In this document: piece after piece, positions 10,087 through 18,920 of the stretch
How the letters are laid out: each line of letters opens with the position of its first letter
Numbering within the stretch: the first letter of the stretch is position 1
Origin: a virus
Reading direction: 5' to 3' (one strand)
Length of the DNA stretch: 64,000 bases
Virus record (IMG/VR): IMGVR_UViG_3300044691_000274
Span: 39,538-103,537 of that record
Position numbers and translations under genes: made by a program
The notes under the pieces: generated by a model
Seen by the model: the letters and a program-made list of their open reading frames with translations, nothing else
Database searches by the model: none
What the model was told of the DNA's origin: nothing

Positions 10087-10530
10087 ATGACTTGGGGCGC
10101 GTTGCGAGGTTTATCTGAAGAGGAACGCCGCGCGCATAAGCGTAGCGTCCATAAGGTGTGGCGTGCCAAGAACGCGGAGCACATACATAATTATCAGACG
10201 GAATACAGAGCTAAAGACCCTGAGAAGGCTAGGGTGGATAACGCCATTTGGCGCAAGAAAAACATAGATCACGTACGGGCAAAGAATAGAGTAAACAAAC
10301 TGAAAAGTATGTATGGCCTTACCGTGCCAGCTCTTGAAGCCATGAAACAAGCGCAAGCGTTTAGGTGTTTACTCTGCGATAAAGAGAAGCCACTGAACGT
10401 AGATCATTGTCATAAAACGGGGCAAGTACGCGGGTTACTATGTACGGACTGTAATACCTCGTTAGGTAAGTTCAACGATGACCCGAATATGCTACGCCGT
10501 GCTACTGCATATTTAGAAGGAACGCTGTGA
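10087..10530 (+). CDS. Endonuclease VII-like HNH nuclease (mobile-type)
   Basis: 147 aa. The C-terminal half has the recombination endonuclease VII signature: CLLC (zinc pair), VDHCHKTGQVRGLLC, then CNTSLG. The N-terminal half is basic and repetitive (RAKN, RAKDPEKAR). Codon use is clearly AT-richer than both neighbours. The gene is wedged between tail-tip and fibre genes, as free-standing homing-type nucleases often are in phage late regions. The alternative role, Holliday-junction cleavage for packaging as in T4 gp49, is less likely given its position and composition. Confidence 0.85.
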   Translation: MTWGALRGLSEEERRAHKRSVHKVWRAKNAEHIHNYQTEYRAKDPEKARVDNAIWRKKNIDHVRAKNRVNKLKSMYGLTVPALEAMKQAQAFRCLLCDKEKPLNVDHCHKTGQVRGLLCTDCNTSLGKFNDDPNMLRRATAYLEGTL

Positions 10531-11900
10531 TGGCTGTCACTCCCAACCTGGGCTTGACCTTAATGAGTAGTTCCCAAGCGCAGAAGGAGGCGGTGTTCAA
10601 CAACGCCATCGTCGCCTTTGATGCGCTGTTCAAGGGCTCGGTCATCAGCTTGGCGCTGAACACTCCGCCTGGCTCGCCTAGTGCGGGCGACATTTACATC
10701 GTGGCGTCCGGAGGCAGCGGGCTGTGGTCGGGCCACGATCACTCGATCACGTTCTATTTCAACGGCTGGCAGTTCTTCACTCCGCCCCTAAAACTCACGC
10801 TTTTCGACCAAAACACGGCTGAATTCTACACTTATCAGGGAGGTTCGACCTTCTGGGTCGCCAATCCTTCGGGCCTCGTCGCGGTCCTGAACGACCTCAC
10901 GAACGTCGCCGGCACGCCGACCAACGGGCAGGTGCTGACGTACAATACGAGCACAAGCAAGTGGGGTCCGGTCACGCCGTCCGCAGGCGCGCTCTCGGTG
11001 TTGACAGACGTCAACGTCACAGAGGGCAGCCCGATCGACGGCCAATACCTCATGTGGAACAATGGGACGAGCAAGTGGGTCGCCCACGCCGTCCCGACAT
11101 ACCCGACTGCTCTCACCGGCCTGACCGACGTCAATGTGACGGAAAGCTCGGGCATCGACACTTATTTGCTGTCCTGGCACAACTCGACTGGCAAGTGGGT
11201 CGCCATCGCGCCGACCGCGCTGACCTCGCTGGCCTCGCTCGCCGGGGTGGGCGACGTCACATACGGTTCAGGGCCGACGATCGGCGACGGCCTGGTCTGG
11301 AGCGGCTCGCACTGGGCGCCTTCGTCCTCGACCATGAGCTATAAGTTCGAGAGTCTGACGGACGGCCCCGGCCTGTTCGCGGGCCACGGCGGCTCGGTCG
11401 TCATGGTGGACGTCAGCGAGACGACGCTCGACTATATGACGCTGCCCACGCTCGCTTCGAACATGAACGCCAGCCTGGCCTACGCCGGCCTGAACGACGT
11501 CACCATCACCTCGCTGGCGACCGGTCAAGTCATGGTGTGGAGTGGAACGAAGTGGACGAACCAAGCCCACGTCGATTTCCCATGCGGGTCCGCCGTAGTC
11601 TCGACCGGCACGCACAACGTTGATCGCAGCGTCGGCGAAGTCCAGCGACTCAGCCTGACGGGCAACACCACCCTAACCGTATCCAACTGGCCGGCCTCGG
11701 GGCTCTTCGGGCGCCTGGTCCTAGAAATCCAGAACACCGGGGCGTTCAACATCACGACCTGGCCCACCGGCACGATCTGGCCGGGCGGCACCGTGCCGAC
11801 CATCACGCCGGGCAGCGGCAAGAAGGACGTCATCATCCTGATGTCGTTCGACGGCGGCACGACGATTTATGGTAGTGCAGCGGGACAGAATTTCAGCTAA
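10530..11900 (+). CDS. DUF2793-containing tail fibre protein with repeats
   Basis: 456 aa from ATG 10530, overlapping the upstream TGA; GTG 10527 is an alternative. Residues 1-110 match DUF2793 (LGLTLMSSSQAQKEAVFNNA, GSGLWSGHDHSITFYFNGWQFFTP), a domain common in alphaproteobacterial phage and GTA fibres. It is followed by about five degenerate repeats of roughly 30 residues, each with L-x-D-V ... G-Q-x-L-x-W-N ... S-K-W, then a beta-rich tip. Repeat shafts of this kind are usual in trimeric fibres. Probable receptor-binding or adaptor protein. Confidence 0.85.
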   Translation: MAVTPNLGLTLMSSSQAQKEAVFNNAIVAFDALFKGSVISLALNTPPGSPSAGDIYIVASGGSGLWSGHDHSITFYFNGWQFFTPPLKLTLFDQNTAEFYTYQGGSTFWVANPSGLVAVLNDLTNVAGTPTNGQVLTYNTSTSKWGPVTPSAGALSVLTDVNVTEGSPIDGQYLMWNNGTSKWVAHAVPTYPTALTGLTDVNVTESSGIDTYLLSWHNSTGKWVAIAPTALTSLASLAGVGDVTYGSGPTIGDGLVWSGSHWAPSSSTMSYKFESLTDGPGLFAGHGGSVVMVDVSETTLDYMTLPTLASNMNASLAYAGLNDVTITSLATGQVMVWSGTKWTNQAHVDFPCGSAVVSTGTHNVDRSVGEVQRLSLTGNTTLTVSNWPASGLFGRLVLEIQNTGAFNITTWPTGTIWPGGTVPTITPGSGKKDVIILMSFDGGTTIYGSAAGQNFS

Positions 11901-11934: not shown

Positions 11935-12381
11935 ATGATGCCCGGTGGAAAAGGACCGACCTTCGATGGTCAGCTTCTTGGACTAATTCTGAATGGCTCA
12001 CCGATCGCGAACATCGCGGACAACGCCGCGTCCTCGCCATTGACGAACCTGTATTTGTCGCTGCACACGGCGACTCCCACGGGAGGCAACCAAGGCACCA
12101 GTGAGGCGGCTTACACCAGCTACGCGCGCAAGGCGCTAGCCCGCAGCACCGGCAGTCCGTCGTGGACCATCTCGGGCGCGGTCGCGACCCTGGCGGCCAT
12201 CCAGTCGTTCGTCGCGGCGACCGGCGGCTCTGAGACAGAACAGTTTTGGGGCATTGGCGTGTCTGCCACCGCGCATGACACTGGCGAACTCCTTTACTGG
12301 GGTCCAGTCACTCCAAACATCGTGGTTTCCAGCGGTGTCACCCCGCAGCTCGGCACCGGGACGACTATCACCGAAGCCTGA
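11935..12381 (+). CDS. Phage tail fibre/head-fibre-like protein
   Basis: 148 aa with ATG 11935 (ATG 11938 also possible) after AGGAGAGC. The sequence LTNLYLSLHTATPTGG, then EAAYTSYARKALARS and FWGIGVSA, matches a widespread small phage structural family placed near fibre genes. Presumed virion decoration or fibre accessory; the exact location is unknown. It is bracketed on both sides by TGCA boxes. Confidence 0.75.
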   Translation: MMPGGKGPTFDGQLLGLILNGSPIANIADNAASSPLTNLYLSLHTATPTGGNQGTSEAAYTSYARKALARSTGSPSWTISGAVATLAAIQSFVAATGGSETEQFWGIGVSATAHDTGELLYWGPVTPNIVVSSGVTPQLGTGTTITEA

Positions 12382-12404: not shown

Positions 12405-12421
12405 ACAGAAGGACCATGCCA

Positions 12422-13075
12422 ATGCGCGCTTCTCTCTTCGCTCTCGGACTCGCCGCTCTTCTCTCCAGCCCAGCCGCAGCGGCGCTCGTCAACGAGGGTG
12501 AGTGGACCCTCGACACGACCACGAACCTGGAGTGGCGACATCCACAGCTAACGCGAGGTGTTGAAGACCCGTTGGGCGCAGGCGGCTTGGCAGGTGCAGG
12601 GTGGAACTACGCAAGCGGTGATGAGTTTTTGGCCCTTGTGACCGATTACGTTGGCCCTGCAGTAGGAGCTTTGCCACCGATAGACCTAAGCGCAGACGGG
12701 AACGTCGTGGGGTACAGCACGTCCTATTTTCTGCCAGTAATTCAATTAATAGGGGCATTAGGCGGGCCTACCTACGCTGTAAGCTACAACGATCCGGGGG
12801 CATATCGTGTGCACAGTACCCAGTACGAGCAGATGTCTATTTGGGGCATACTTGAGGTGAGCCCTAACCAATACGCTGAAGGTTACCTTATTTCGGACCT
12901 GTGGCCGACGTCTGCGGGCGCGTGGGCCTACGGAGACTCCAACGGCGGGGTAGCACAGTTCGAAGGCAGCTTCTTAGTTCGGGAGGCCCCTGCTCCAGAA
13001 ATCTCGACCATGCTCATGATGCTCATGGGCTTCGTGGGCCTCGGTTACGCCGGTCGGCGCCGCGCGGTGATCTAA
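12422..13075 (+). CDS. Secreted PEP-CTERM-type protein encoded by the phage
   Basis: 217 aa from ATG 12422 (AAGGA 8 nt upstream; ATG 12416 is in frame but too close to it). An N-terminal signal peptide ends near SSPAAAALV. The C-terminus from residue 192 reads PEISTMLMMLMGF followed by a hydrophobic Gly-rich helix and a terminal RRR cluster, i.e. a PEP-CTERM exosortase sorting signal. The middle (about 165 residues, EWTLDTTTNLEWRH, WNYASGDEF) resembles bacterial secreted PEP-CTERM proteins that start with such a W-L-D-T-x-T-x-L-E-W segment. Codon use is somewhat AT-richer than the fibres either side. It would be exported by Sec and processed by a host exosortase, so it is unlikely to be a virion protein in the usual sense. 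Possible jobs are surface masking or superinfection exclusion (inference). Confidence 0.8.
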   Translation: MRASLFALGLAALLSSPAAAALVNEGEWTLDTTTNLEWRHPQLTRGVEDPLGAGGLAGAGWNYASGDEFLALVTDYVGPAVGALPPIDLSADGNVVGYSTSYFLPVIQLIGALGGPTYAVSYNDPGAYRVHSTQYEQMSIWGILEVSPNQYAEGYLISDLWPTSAGAWAYGDSNGGVAQFEGSFLVREAPAPEISTMLMMLMGFVGLGYAGRRRAVI

Positions 13076-13076
13076 G

Positions 13077-15086
13077 ATGGCCTACGCTAACGCAGCCGGG
13101 CAATACGTCAACTACGGCAATGGCACGACGACCGGCTATTACGCCCTGACCAAGTGGGCGGCCGGCGCGGCGGTGACCGTTGGCATGCTGCGCCGACAGC
13201 TTACGGTGACAGGGTTCGTAGCCGAGCGGGTGTTCGTCTGCATAGTCGCCGGCACCACTGGATCGACTGAGCCTACGTGGGTGTTGACCAAAGGCGCGCG
13301 GTCGCCCGCTACAGGCACTGACGGCACAGCTGTTGTCTGGATGGAAGTGACTGGGCAGCCAGGCGTCAACGGCGACGTGACAGCGAGGACAGACGGCGTC
13401 GTCAACTGCCCTCAGTGGACTGTCAGCTCGACCCCGGCCCTTGGCACAATCATCTACGTCCCGAGCAACGGGTCACTGCAAATATGCACCACCTCGGGAG
13501 CTGGCGGAGCCACTATACCAGGAACGTTCAGCACGACGCCAAGCACCCCAGCAGCAGATGGCTCGGCGTCGTGGACCAGCCTTGGATTGGCCAGCAGCTT
13601 CAGCATATGGAGCGCGCCACACGCGCGCCTGAATAACGCCTGGACGTCCACGTGGGGCTTCGCCGGACAAGATTTCTACGTCTCCTCGATCCACGCGGAG
13701 ACCCAGAGCACTGCGATGACGCTCACTAGCCCAGGCACGGTCACGACGCCGTGCCGAGTGATCTGCGTCGCCCAGTCGCCAGCCTCAACGCCTCCCGGCT
13801 CGGCTGACGTGACCACAGGCGCGTCGATCTCGACGAGTGGCAACACCGACATGAGCCTGTGCCCTGGCACGAACATGACCTATATCTACGGCGTCGCGTT
13901 CACGTGCAGCAACGGAGCGGGCGCGAGCGGGACCTTCTCGATGGCGGTAGGCGTCGCCACTCTCACGCTCGAAAACTGCTCAGTCGTTTTGGGTACGACG
14001 TTTGGCAATCCGTTGAAGGTCGGACCGGCCACCGCCAGCCAGCAGGCGACTGTGCTCTGGAACAACGTCAAGTGGGCATCCGGCAATTCGGCCCAGGCGA
14101 TCCAGGTACAACAGGCGGATTTCACCTGGAGGAACACGCCAAGCGGCGCGTTCAGCGGGGCGCAAGCCGGCAACCCTGCTGTTCAGGCCAACCCCGGTCC
14201 ATGCAACATTTTGTTGGAAGGGCTCGATCTCAGCAACAACACGCACCCTGTCGTTGGTTCGGTATCCGGCGGGACAGGCTACGCTTGCGTCAAAGACTGC
14301 AAACTGCCCCCTGGTATAGCTTGGGGGGTAGCAGGGACCGGGGCCAATTTCACGGTAGACTTGGTGCGCAGCGACACTGCTGGGGCCACGTATCGCAATG
14401 AGCGCCTCTCGTCCCAAGGGTCGCAGACGACCGACACCCAATTCTATCGAAACGGCGGCGCGTCGGATGGCACCACGCCGGTCTCACATATGATCGTCAC
14501 TTCTTCGAATGGCTTGCTCTCGACCTGGAACCCGTTCCTTGGCCTCCCGATCGCCATCTGGAACGGCACGACGGGGTCGAGCGTGCATGTCACGCTGTTC
14601 GGTATTGTCAACGCAGCGGTGGTGCCTAACAACGACGGGTTCTGGTTTGAAGCCGAATATCTCGGGACGTCGGGGTCCGCCGTCGGCTCCTTCGCTTCGG
14701 CCTTCAAGGCGAACGTCCTAGCAGCTCCAGCCGCGCTCACGGCTGACAGCACTTCGAGCTGGTCCGTAGGCGCACCCTTGCGAACCAACGGTGGATCGTA
14801 CAGCCCTGCCGACCCCCCGATCGCGGTGGCGAGCAACCCCGGTCGGCTGTTTTTCTGCACCACTACCGGAAACTCAGCAGGCTCCGAGCCGACAGGCGTT
14901 GGCGGCTATAGCGCGTGTATCGACGGTGGCTCCGTGACGGATAACACAGCGGTGTTCCGCGCAGGCTGCCGGTTCTCGGTGAGCCTCAACGTCACTCCGC
15001 AGCAGGCCGGCTACATCTACGCTTATCCGAAATATGCGCAGATGAGCACGTCCTACTTTATCGACCCGCTGATCGTGCTGACCTAA
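13077..15086 (+). CDS. Large tail fibre/receptor-binding protein
   Basis: 669 aa, ATG one base after the upstream stop. Starts MAYANAAGQYVNYGNG and has a small domain with FVCIVAGTTGSTEPTW, a motif repeated near the end as FFCTTTGNSAGSEPTG; such pairs are common in phage fibre modules. The middle is beta-rich with many Thr/Ser/Asn/Gly and reads like a beta-helix shaft. No catalytic motif was recognised. Position in the fibre cluster suggests host-surface binding. Confidence 0.75.
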   Translation: MAYANAAGQYVNYGNGTTTGYYALTKWAAGAAVTVGMLRRQLTVTGFVAERVFVCIVAGTTGSTEPTWVLTKGARSPATGTDGTAVVWMEVTGQPGVNGDVTARTDGVVNCPQWTVSSTPALGTIIYVPSNGSLQICTTSGAGGATIPGTFSTTPSTPAADGSASWTSLGLASSFSIWSAPHARLNNAWTSTWGFAGQDFYVSSIHAETQSTAMTLTSPGTVTTPCRVICVAQSPASTPPGSADVTTGASISTSGNTDMSLCPGTNMTYIYGVAFTCSNGAGASGTFSMAVGVATLTLENCSVVLGTTFGNPLKVGPATASQQATVLWNNVKWASGNSAQAIQVQQADFTWRNTPSGAFSGAQAGNPAVQANPGPCNILLEGLDLSNNTHPVVGSVSGGTGYACVKDCKLPPGIAWGVAGTGANFTVDLVRSDTAGATYRNERLSSQGSQTTDTQFYRNGGASDGTTPVSHMIVTSSNGLLSTWNPFLGLPIAIWNGTTGSSVHVTLFGIVNAAVVPNNDGFWFEAEYLGTSGSAVGSFASAFKANVLAAPAALTADSTSSWSVGAPLRTNGGSYSPADPPIAVASNPGRLFFCTTTGNSAGSEPTGVGGYSACIDGGSVTDNTAVFRAGCRFSVSLNVTPQQAGYIYAYPKYAQMSTSYFIDPLIVLT

Positions 15087-15090
15087 GCCC

Positions 15091-15492
15091 ATGGCTCGCC
15101 AGGCAGGTCTATACACGAACGGCCTCGGAGCGATCTTCGTCAATGAGACGAGGGCGGGCCAAGTCGGCTTGCCTGGCGAGTTCTTCGACGAGACGTCTGG
15201 CCTCACGGTCCACGCCGCGACAGGCTCAGCCACGGGCCAGGCTTCGGTGTCCGGCCAGGGCAAGGCGCTGTTCACCGGCAACGGCAGCGCGACCGGCCAG
15301 GCGTCAGTGTCGGGCTCGTCGTCCTCGGGCAAGCTCGTGACGGGCACTGCCGCAGGGCAGGCGTCGGTCTCAGGGCAGGGCCAGTCGAAGGCTCTGGCCA
15401 ACGGCTCCGCCACCGGCCAGGCGTCCGTCTCGGGGCAAGGACGATCCATCACAAGGAACGGCGGGGCCATCTTTCTGCTGATCGGGGTGTGA
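15091..15492 (+). CDS. Small repeat protein of the fibre cluster
   Basis: 133 aa. The N-terminal part (ARQAGLYTNGLGAIFVNE) precedes four tandem copies of a unit of about 16-19 residues with the core G-x-A-T/A-G-Q-A-S-V-S-G, then GGAIFLLIGV. The repeats are visible in DNA at about 15220-15440. Their small-residue composition suggests a beta-solenoid or flexible stalk. Similar repeat arrays change copy number by recombination. Probably a virion or fibre accessory; no enzymatic motif. Confidence 0.65.
   Translation: MARQAGLYTNGLGAIFVNETRAGQVGLPGEFFDETSGLTVHAATGSATGQASVSGQGKALFTGNGSATGQASVSGSSSSGKLVTGTAAGQASVSGQGQSKALANGSATGQASVSGQGRSITRNGGAIFLLIGV
15220..15440 (+). repeat. Four in-frame tandem repeats encoding GxATGQASVSGQG-like units
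   Basis: Each unit contains a near-identical core of about 30 nt (GCSACSGGCCAGGCGTCNGT-like, encoding ATGQASVSG), separated by variable linkers. Confidence 0.75.
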
Positions 15493-16561: not shown

Positions 16562-16816
16562 ATGCTCGCAATCGCCACGTTCTTCATCGGCCCGATCGGT
16601 CGCTACGTCGCTCTCGCCCTCGCGGCAGGGGCGGCTCTCGGCTGGTACACGGTCCACGAGCGGAACATTGGCGCAGCGAAGGTCACGACTCAAATCGAAG
16701 AGCAGAACAAGGAAGCTGATCATGAAGCGGAAGGCATACGCAACGGGGTTCAGCGTAATTGCGCTGTTGTCCCTCTCCCTGCTGACTGCGTGCGCGACGG
16801 TTGGTCCCGAGACTAA
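16562..16816 (+). CDS. Inner-membrane spanin-like protein (Rz-like)
   Basis: 84 aa. One N-terminal transmembrane helix (about residues 10-30) followed by a charged helical stretch (HERNIGAAKVTTQIEEQNKEADHEAEG), the topology of an i-spanin. It is shorter than typical Rz (~150 aa). Its 3' half overlaps, out of frame, a lipoprotein gene starting at 16722, which is the classic nested Rz/Rz1 arrangement and the main support for the assignment. Confidence 0.7.
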   Translation: MLAIATFFIGPIGRYVALALAAGAALGWYTVHERNIGAAKVTTQIEEQNKEADHEAEGIRNGVQRNCAVVPLPADCVRDGWSRD

Positions 16817-16946
16817 AGCCGGGGCCTGCAACATCTTCAAGCCGATCACGACGTCGGTCCAGGACACACAGCCGACCAAGACGCAGGTTTTCGCTCACAA
16901 CGCAGTGGGCCACAAAGAATGCGGATGGACTCCGCCCAAGTCCTAA
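16722..16946 (+). CDS. Outer-membrane spanin-like lipoprotein (Rz1-like)
   Basis: 74 aa from ATG 16722 (AAGGAAG 8 nt upstream), embedded in the +1 frame of the Rz-like gene. A signal sequence ends in the lipobox LLTAC. The mature part contains a FKPITTS segment and HNAVGHKECGW, a C-terminal signature seen in short phage lysis-cassette lipoproteins of proteobacteria. It should pair with the upstream i-spanin to fuse inner and outer membranes at the end of lysis. Confidence 0.75.
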   Translation: MKRKAYATGFSVIALLSLSLLTACATVGPETKAGACNIFKPITTSVQDTQPTKTQVFAHNAVGHKECGWTPPKS

Positions 16947-17309: not shown

Positions 17310-18920
17310 ATGGCCAGGACGCTTTCTGACAAAGAAGCCGCCCGCACGAAACGTGCATTCGAACTCAGCGACCATAATGTTACCGAGACCGCCCGCCGGA
17401 TGGGCATAAGCCGCACCACCATCCGGGACCGCCTCATTAAGATGGGGCTCACGGACAACGCCAAGACCACCAAGAAGCCGGACGTCGTCGGCGCCAAGAA
17501 GGTCTGGGCTGCGCCCGCTAAGACGCGCGTCGTCATCATGACCGGAGTGCAGGACGACTCGGGCATGGTGCCTGGCTGGCAGAACCTGCTGGCCTATACC
17601 AAGAAGCGCGACGGCGAGTTCCTCGTCGGGGGCTTCACCTACGACAAGAAGCTCTACACGGATCACGAGACCAAGACGGCGTTGTTCCATCACGACGTGC
17701 TGCCTTACATGAACGGCGAGATCATGCAGCTTGCGCCGCGCCTCGTCTGGTACGGCGACTTCAACGTGCTGCCGACCGCCGCCGACCCGCTCACCGGCTG
17801 GGACACGAACACCAAGGACAGTTGGGCCGTGTTCCCTCACGCCAAGATCGGCCTGAAGTGTGTCCCGACGATGCCAGGCCGGCCAGGCAAGCAGATCATG
17901 ACCACCGGGGTCATCAGCCGCGCGAATTACATCCGCAAGAACGCCGGCCAGAAGGCCGAGTTCCATCACACCCACGGCGCCACAATCGCCGAGATCAAGC
18001 CGGACGGCACGTTCTTCTGCCGCCAGCTGATCCTGCTCAAGGACGGATCGTTCCAGGACCTGGACGTTATGGTCAAGGACGGGAAGGTCACAAAAGGGCC
18101 GCCGGTAGAGGCCATCACCTGGGGCGACATCCACCGGGAATGGCTCGACCCGACCGTCGCGCGCGTCTGCTGGGGTTTCGACGTCGAGACCGGTGCAGTT
18201 AACGGCACGTCGATGCTCGACGACCTTCGGCCGCGCCACCAGTTCTTCCACGACTCGTTCGACTTCAAGGCCCGGAACCACTGGACCCGCAACGACCCGC
18301 ACGAGCGGCAGAAGCGCAACTACGAGAACTGCAACAGCGTCACGGACATGCTGGACAGCACCGCGCAGTTCCTCTCCGCGACCCGCCGCGACTTCTCGAA
18401 GAGCGTCCACGTTAGCTCGAACCACAACGACGCGCTCGACCGCTGGCTGAAGTCGCCGGACGGCCACATGGACGCGAAGAACGCCCAAATCTGGCATGAG
18501 CTGAACGCGGCTTGGCACGGCGCGATCAAGGAGGGTGACCTCCGGTTCGAGGCGTTCGCCTACGCGCTGCAGAAGCGGGACTGGAACCTCGACGACGTCG
18601 CCTTCGTCCGGCGCGGCGAGAGCTACACCATCTGCCAAGCCACACAGCCGGTCGAGTGCGGCCTTCACATGGACGTGGGTCCACGCGGCGCGCGCGGCAG
18701 CGCCAAGGGCCTCAGCAAGATCGTGGAGCGCGTCAACGGCGCCCACACGCATGAGCCCGCGATCGTCGAAGGCGTCTACGTCGCCGGCACCAGCACGGTC
18801 CTGGACATCCCTTACGCCACGCGCGGCCCGACCGGCTGGGCGCAGGCTGAGATCATCACTTACGAGAGCGGGAAGCGCGCGATCGTGACCATCAGCAACG
18901 GAGGATACCGTGCGTCTTAG
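17310..18920 (+). CDS. HTH plus metallophosphoesterase-like protein (T5 A1-like?)
   Basis: 536 aa. The N-terminus is a Fis-type helix-turn-helix (residues about 20-48: NVTETARRMGISRTTIRDRL). The remainder has motifs placed as in calcineurin-like phosphoesterases: YGDFN, WGDIHREW, FDVETG with a downstream DD, SSNHNDALDRW, and CGLHMDVGPRGARGS. Annotated relatives in other phages are often called A1-like or DNA-transfer proteins; I infer that similarity from motif layout only. The fusion of a DNA-binding domain with a phosphoesterase suggests action on nucleic acid. Its stop overlaps the next start by 11 nt. Confidence 0.6.
   Translation: MARTLSDKEAARTKRAFELSDHNVTETARRMGISRTTIRDRLIKMGLTDNAKTTKKPDVVGAKKVWAAPAKTRVVIMTGVQDDSGMVPGWQNLLAYTKKRDGEFLVGGFTYDKKLYTDHETKTALFHHDVLPYMNGEIMQLAPRLVWYGDFNVLPTAADPLTGWDTNTKDSWAVFPHAKIGLKCVPTMPGRPGKQIMTTGVISRANYIRKNAGQKAEFHHTHGATIAEIKPDGTFFCRQLILLKDGSFQDLDVMVKDGKVTKGPPVEAITWGDIHREWLDPTVARVCWGFDVETGAVNGTSMLDDLRPRHQFFHDSFDFKARNHWTRNDPHERQKRNYENCNSVTDMLDSTAQFLSATRRDFSKSVHVSSNHNDALDRWLKSPDGHMDAKNAQIWHELNAAWHGAIKEGDLRFEAFAYALQKRDWNLDDVAFVRRGESYTICQATQPVECGLHMDVGPRGARGSAKGLSKIVERVNGAHTHEPAIVEGVYVAGTSTVLDIPYATRGPTGWAQAEIITYESGKRAIVTISNGGYRAS

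What the first reader, a model, noticed from the sequence alone, without database searches (positions are those of the whole stretch)
12422..13075. A phage gene with a signal peptide and a PEP-CTERM sorting signal
The protein has a Sec signal at one end and PEISTMLMMLMGF...RRR at the other. Known: PEP-CTERM signals are recognised by exosortases of EPS-producing bacteria. A phage copy placed among fibre genes implies that the infected cell or lysogen displays a phage-encoded surface/EPS protein. It could block receptors, alter biofilm, or be carried host DNA. I know of no established role for such a gene in phages.
Basis: partly seen in the sequence, partly recalled or inferred. Interest (0 to 1): 0.76.

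Follow-up and report, generated by a model that had tools for sequence, protein, structure and literature searches.

The report
Phage gene for host-sorted surface protein
A large, probably lytic, phage carries an intact gene for a bacterial type of secreted protein whose tail bears the tag that the host's own exosortase sorting machine recognises, so an infected cell could put a phage-chosen protein on its surface or in its slime; what it does there is untested.

Summary
ORF 12422-13075 (217 aa) has a Sec signal peptide and a C-terminal PEP-CTERM-type tail (PEISTMLMMLMGFVGLGYAGRRR). Pfam and NCBIfam score the tail below cut-off, but so do seven of seven tested host proteins with PEI/PET/PEV/PEL tails, from genomes that encode an exosortase. 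A profile built without the query still ranks the phage tail first (21.1 bits; next ORF 7.6). The body is not a fibre: it is full-length homologous to a cellular Alphaproteobacterial protein (signal peptide, "DTxTGLEW...GWRYATxxE" domain, "G.FLVR", sorting tail), and the three genomes holding relatives all encode an exosortase. No exosortase was found in the phage contig, a 103-kb siphophage with lytic-type gene content. Its nearest syntenic relative lacks the gene, whose codon usage is atypical: a captured host-type cargo gene in a variable fibre cluster. PEP-CTERM genes also lie beside phage core genes in at least three other phages, and one orthologous pair is under purifying selection. Best reading: Sec-exported, processed by host exosortase, shown on the envelope or in EPS, most plausibly masking receptors on infected cells or debris (functional analogue of T5 Llp). 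Identity is well supported; function is inferred.

The parts
12408..12413 (+). Probable ribosome binding site GAAGGA, 8 nt before the ATG at 12422
   Evidence: Read directly; an in-frame ATG at 12416 is too close to it
12422..13075 (+). Gene for a 217-aa secreted protein with an exosortase-type sorting tail
   Evidence: Open frame; full-length homologue in an Alphaproteobacterial genome, L161
12422..12481 (+). Sec/SPase-I signal peptide, residues 1-20
   Evidence: Sequence MRASLFALGLAALLSSPAAA, n-, h- and c-regions with AxA site; by eye
12506..12646 (+). N-terminal domain of the cellular family ('DTTTNLEW ... GWNYASGDEF'), residues 29-75
   Evidence: E 7e-7 hit in G699; three relatives, body z-scores 14.6, 9.2, 8.0 against shuffles
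12992..13063 (+). PEP-CTERM-type tail, residues 191-214: PEI motif, hydrophobic helix, RRR
   Evidence: 37.3 bits (query-biased profile) and 21.1 bits (independent profile)
11935..12381 (+). Upstream neighbour: gp80-like podophage fibre protein (PF23140)
   Evidence: E 1e-9, 39.2 bits over cut-off 27
10527..11900 (+). DUF2793 tail-fibre-like protein
   Evidence: PF10983 E 1.2e-16; tail/fibre PHROGs
13077..15086 (+). Downstream neighbour: 669-aa probable virion/fibre protein
   Evidence: phrog_20658 head decoration E 8.6e-9; 30% homologue over 439 aa in phage L154
15600..16559 (+). GH108 endolysin that bounds the variable fibre cluster
   Evidence: PF05838 E 6.5e-24

Best explanation
The gene is a captured cellular-type cargo gene (a 'moron') in the variable fibre cluster of a probably lytic siphophage. 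Shown by sequence: an intact ORF with a good ribosome site; a Sec signal; a body homologous over its full length to an Alphaproteobacterial exosortase-substrate protein; a tail of the Hyphomicrobiales PEP-CTERM type; no exosortase match in the phage contig. Inferred: during infection the protein is exported by Sec, held in the inner membrane by its tail, cut and passed on by the host's exosortase, and ends on the outer envelope or in the exopolysaccharide. Inferred with less certainty: there it masks or alters the receptor or EPS layer, so that progeny do not adsorb to the dying cell, its debris or already infected neighbours. That is the job T5 does with the lipoprotein Llp, whose gene lies next to the receptor-binding protein gene, but here by borrowing exosortase sorting instead of lipoprotein sorting.
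For: Tail profile scores with controls. Full-length cellular homologue with body z 14.6. All three genomes with relatives, and all three genomes with PEIST tails, encode an exosortase against 30 of 240 in the class. Gene absent from syntenic relative L009 and five other T5-A1 relatives; atypical codon usage (GC3 0.63 vs about 0.85). PEP-CTERM genes next to phage core genes elsewhere, one orthologous pair with dN/dS about 0.2. Llp genes adjoin the receptor-binding gene in T5 and BF23 and are not homologous to each other (PMC9586334, PMC4728585).
Against: Host unknown, so its exosortase is unproven. The motif is PEI and lacks W. No own promoter-like site, whereas Llp is expressed early. No homologous gene in any other phage, so selection on this gene cannot be measured. 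No evidence that it touches a receptor. Its relatives' functions are unknown.
Confidence: 0.5

Rival explanations
1. Surface or EPS-matrix modifier unrelated to receptors: the protein acts like its cellular relatives in the extracellular matrix, changing aggregation or loosening the biofilm so that progeny spread.
For: PEP-CTERM proteins are tied to EPS and floc formation (PMC1569441, PMC9850573 as found); the phage protein is homologous to such secreted proteins. Probable late expression fits release.
Against: No function is known for this particular family; nothing in the body is a recognised polysaccharide-binding or enzymatic domain.
Confidence: 0.25
2. Recently acquired passenger host gene with no role for the phage, on its way to loss.
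For: Foreign codon usage, absence from relatives, degenerate PEP/W positions, no phage homologue.
Against: Open frame, good ribosome site and tight spacing kept; both signals intact; divergence from the cellular homologue is large (27% identity) with architecture kept, which argues against a very recent neutral pick-up; a phage-borne PEP-CTERM gene elsewhere is under purifying selection.
Confidence: 0.2
3. Virion component: an accessory fibre or tail protein whose hydrophobic ends serve assembly or membrane contact.
For: Lies among fibre genes.
Against: A Sec signal would take it out of the cytoplasm, where siphophage tails assemble; homologous to secreted cellular proteins, not to fibres; no PHROG match.
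Confidence: 0.05
4. Lysis-cassette membrane protein (spanin or holin-like helper).
For: N-terminal signal, C-terminal membrane segment, nearby endolysin and a probable Rz/Rz1 pair.
Against: Homology to exosortase substrates; a separate Rz/Rz1-like pair already follows the endolysin.
Confidence: 0.03

Closest known systems
PEP-CTERM / exosortase substrates (TIGR02595, PF07589, NF035944) of bacteria
   Same: Sec signal, divergent body, short C-terminal motif + hydrophobic helix + basic end; tail profile match
   Different: Encoded by a phage; PEI instead of PEP, M instead of W; below curated cut-offs, as are host PEI/PET/PEV/PEL proteins
Unnamed cellular family of L161 (G699), with L162 and L175
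   Same: Full-length homology: signal peptide, 'DTxTGLEW...GWRYATxxE', 'G.FLVR', exosortase-type tail
   Different: 27% identity; L161 and L175 have VPLPPA/VPVPAP-type tails, the phage a PEIST tail
T5/BF23 Llp superinfection-exclusion lipoproteins
   Same: Exported envelope protein gene beside the fibre/receptor-binding genes of a phage that shares a T5-A1-like gene
   Different: No lipobox, three times larger, no own promoter-like site, no sequence relation; function not tested
TIGR03118 proteins reported in Yellowstone virus genomes (PMC11003980)
   Different: Different protein family; that paper proposes no role
Lcl_C / DUF1566 (PF07603)
   Same: Similar 'D..TgL.W ... GWR ... E' pattern; relative L162 matches weakly, E 0.19
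   Different: The phage protein itself has no match; only a lead

Membership tests
PEP-CTERM exosortase substrate | N-terminal signal peptide | tested here: met
   Read directly; no predictor program available; aligned signal region in cellular relatives
PEP-CTERM exosortase substrate | C-terminal motif, hydrophobic helix and basic end, at the very C-terminus | tested here: met
   Residues 191-214 of 217; 21.1 bits with an independent profile, 37.3 with a query-biased one
PEP-CTERM exosortase substrate | Near-invariant Pro-Glu-Pro | tested here: not met
   PEI. But PEI/PES/PET/PEL/PEV/PEA tails occur in exosortase-bearing Rhodoblastus and Bradyrhizobium genomes. So it is filed as a PE-x variant, not as strict PEP-CTERM
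PEP-CTERM exosortase substrate | Score over curated Pfam/NCBIfam cut-off | tested here: not met
   14.7 vs 20.7; 12.8 vs 35. Seven host PE-x proteins fail Pfam too
PEP-CTERM exosortase substrate | Exosortase (PF09721) in the same cell | not testable with these tools
   Phage contig has no match; host unknown; genomes with relatives all have one
Cellular family of L161 | Full-length sequence homology including body | tested here: met
   E 7e-7, BLASTP 5e-14 for the pair, body z 14.6
T5 Llp-like superinfection exclusion protein | Lipoprotein signal (lipobox) | tested here: not met
   No Cys after the signal peptide; not filed as an Llp
T5 Llp-like superinfection exclusion protein | Gene adjoins fibre/receptor-binding genes | tested here: met
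   Between gp80-like and fibre-cluster genes; which of them binds the receptor is unknown
T5 Llp-like superinfection exclusion protein | Blocks adsorption or infection by the same phage | not testable with these tools
   Needs an experiment

The most novel reading that the evidence does not exclude
Phages of exosortase-bearing bacteria repeatedly recruit exosortase substrates as surface-display cargo: the phage supplies only the tagged protein and uses the host's sorting machine to repaint the infected cell, for superinfection exclusion or matrix control. This would be a route of phage conversion not described in the literature searched.
Probability: 0.35. Interest if true: 0.75.

Novelty: new variant of a known kind. 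Interest (0 to 1): 0.52.

Why it matters
Phage control of the bacterial surface is known through lipoproteins, O-antigen enzymes and similar tools, but I found no account of it through exosortase. If phages feed their own proteins into the exosortase route, that gives a new form of surface conversion in EPS-forming environmental bacteria, and a way to learn what PEP-CTERM proteins do: a phage gene with a defined time of action. It also suggests that curated models miss many PE-x-type tails in Hyphomicrobiales.

Tried and rejected
Single-sequence searches for relatives in viral contigs, INPHARED phages, plasmids and genome contigs found none; the body in 297 Hyphomicrobiales and 398 Pseudomonadota genomes gave only chance-level hits. 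A guessed DNA motif for the cellular family gave 3 chance matches. Using only 60 residues from the start of the mature protein succeeded. The family alignment found no viral relatives. AlphaFold without an alignment was useless (pLDDT 36), so no fold search was made. A tail consensus in INPHARED found nothing (a 27-aa query is weak). A regex scan of T5-A1 relatives found no real PEP-CTERM gene (the one hit, in L032, is not convincing). Virion-protein and lysis readings were considered and ranked low. The worry that PEI and sub-threshold scores meant a false motif was rejected by the host controls.

Full report
What was checked. The window is bases 39538-103537 of a 103,537-bp linear virus contig. 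Core genes found on it are DNA polymerase, portal, head maturation protease, tape measure, tail proteins, DnaB helicase, GH108 endolysin and a T5-A1-like 'DNA transfer' protein. Its nearest named relatives by tape measure are Rhodobacter phage RcZahn and Rhizobium phages RHph_Y1_11 and RHph_TM16, all about 100 kb. No integrase appeared among the genes annotated, but not every gene was scanned. It is read here as a lytic-type siphophage of an Alphaproteobacterium; the host is unknown.

The gene. ORF 12422-13075 encodes 217 aa. GAAGGA lies 8 nt upstream of the ATG; the gene starts 40 nt after the gp80-like fibre gene and ends 1 nt before the gene of a 669-aa probable virion/fibre protein. Residues 1-20 are a classical Sec signal with AxA cleavage and no lipobox Cys. 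Residues 191-214 read APEISTMLMMLMGFVGLGYAGRRR.

Is the tail more than chance? Curated models see it only weakly: PF07589 14.7 bits (cut-off 20.7), NF035944 12.8 (35), TIGR02595 none. I therefore looked at real tails in exosortase-bearing genomes. In a Rhodoblastus MAG and two Bradyrhizobium genomes, each with one exosortase, 30 recovered tails carry P (16), I (4), S (3), T (3), L (2), A (1) or V (1) at the third position. These genomes were picked by a PEIST pattern and most tails were recovered by similarity to the query, so the share of I is inflated; that PE-x tails exist in such genomes is not in doubt. The derived profile gives 37.3 bits. A profile from 43 tails collected by a PEP[ST]TWAMM pattern, without the query, gives 21.1 bits against 7.6 for the next of 8,684 ORFs and 5.7 for the best of 20,000 shuffles. 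Seven host proteins with PEI/PET/PEV/PEL tails also score below the Pfam cut-off, while a PEPST control passes. The signal is real and of the Hyphomicrobiales type; only its strict PEP form is missing.

What the body is. Whole-body searches failed, but 60 residues from the start of the mature protein hit an Alphaproteobacterial genome at E 7e-7 (one of 376 genomes searched). That protein (L161, 213 aa) has a signal peptide, the stretch 'SDTQSGLEWLDVNLTAGRNYFDVSSELGSGGEFEGWRYATAQEF', a terminal 'GAFLVRD' and a VPLPPA-type sorting tail. BLASTP aligns it with the phage protein over 231 columns (27%, E 5e-14 for the pair); with signal and tail removed the score is 14.6 sd above shuffles. Two weaker hits from the same search, L162 (PEP-CTERM) and L175 (VPVPAP), share the N-terminal domain (z 9.2 and 8.0). 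All three genomes encode an exosortase, against 30 of 240 in the class. The phage gene therefore descends from, or shares descent with, a cellular exosortase substrate.

Origin in the phage. The nearest syntenic phage, L009 (57% in the tail protein), has a different 541-aa protein between its DUF2793 fibre gene and endolysin, and no such gene; five further T5-A1 relatives, some of them fragments, lack it too. GC3 is 0.63 against about 0.85 in core genes, and codon usage is atypical. This fits horizontal gain in a variable fibre cluster. It does not point to a high-GC3 donor, so the immediate source is open.

Not a one-off. A strict PEP[ST]TWAMM DNA pattern finds 46 stretches of IMG/VR contigs. 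Some may be host flanks, but in L064 the gene lies on one fragment with portal, terminase and helicase genes, in L063 beside an Erf recombinase and a phage methyltransferase, and in L062 near a primase. The L063/L079 orthologues (82% identical) show dN 0.15 and dS 0.71, so at least one phage-borne PEP-CTERM gene is under purifying selection. In the literature searched I found only a tally of TIGR03118 proteins with a putative exosortase-interaction domain in Yellowstone viruses (PMC11003980) and no proposed role.

Mechanism. Export by Sec, membrane retention and hand-over to host exosortase follow from the published model (PMC1569441) and are inferred for this protein. For purpose, the best analogue is Llp: T5 and BF23 carry non-homologous receptor-blocking lipoproteins next to their receptor-binding genes (PMC9586334, PMC4728585). 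Our gene sits among fibre genes in a phage with a T5-A1-like gene. Against a close parallel: no lipobox, and no promoter-like site directly in front, so late expression is likelier. Late expression fits protection of progeny from debris better than early exclusion. Matrix modification and a neutral passenger remain open.

Verdict. Observation confirmed; cellular exosortase-substrate identity well supported (about 0.85, my estimate); use of host exosortase probable (about 0.65); surface masking the likeliest single function but far from certain (about 0.35).

Noticed in passing
10087-10530 +: Endonuclease VII/HNH-type gene (PF02945 E 6.4e-24) with GC 47.5% and GC3 0.49 in a 62% GC tail cluster; looks like a mobile free-standing nuclease.
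   Followed up: partly
16562-16816 + and 16668-16946 +: Overlapping ORFs after the endolysin; the inner one has a lipobox-like 'LLTAC' and may be Rz1 to an Rz-like outer ORF.
   Followed up: no
17310-18920 +: T5 A1-like 'DNA transfer protein' (phrog_1745 E 1.9e-141) in an Alphaproteobacterial-type phage; 50 relatives in IMG/VR.
   Followed up: partly
15091-15492 +: 133-aa protein made of repeats of the type 'GSATGQASVSGQGK' at the end of the fibre cluster.
   Followed up: no
L064 12718-13305, L067 3402-3989, L063 2672-3424, L079 1989-2747, L062 3198-4118: PEP-CTERM genes on other phage contigs, beside terminase/portal/helicase, Erf/methyltransferase or primase genes.
   Followed up: partly
L104-L118, L133-L152 (Rhodoblastus MAG G007 and two Bradyrhizobium genomes): Many exosortase-type tails with PEI/PET/PES/PEL/PEV in place of PEP; the seven tested fall below the Pfam cut-off, so annotation probably undercounts them.
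   Followed up: yes
L154 15620-16873 -: 30% homologue (439 aa) of the 13077-15086 protein in another phage that also shares the endolysin (62%): mosaic exchange of fibre and lysis genes.
   Followed up: no
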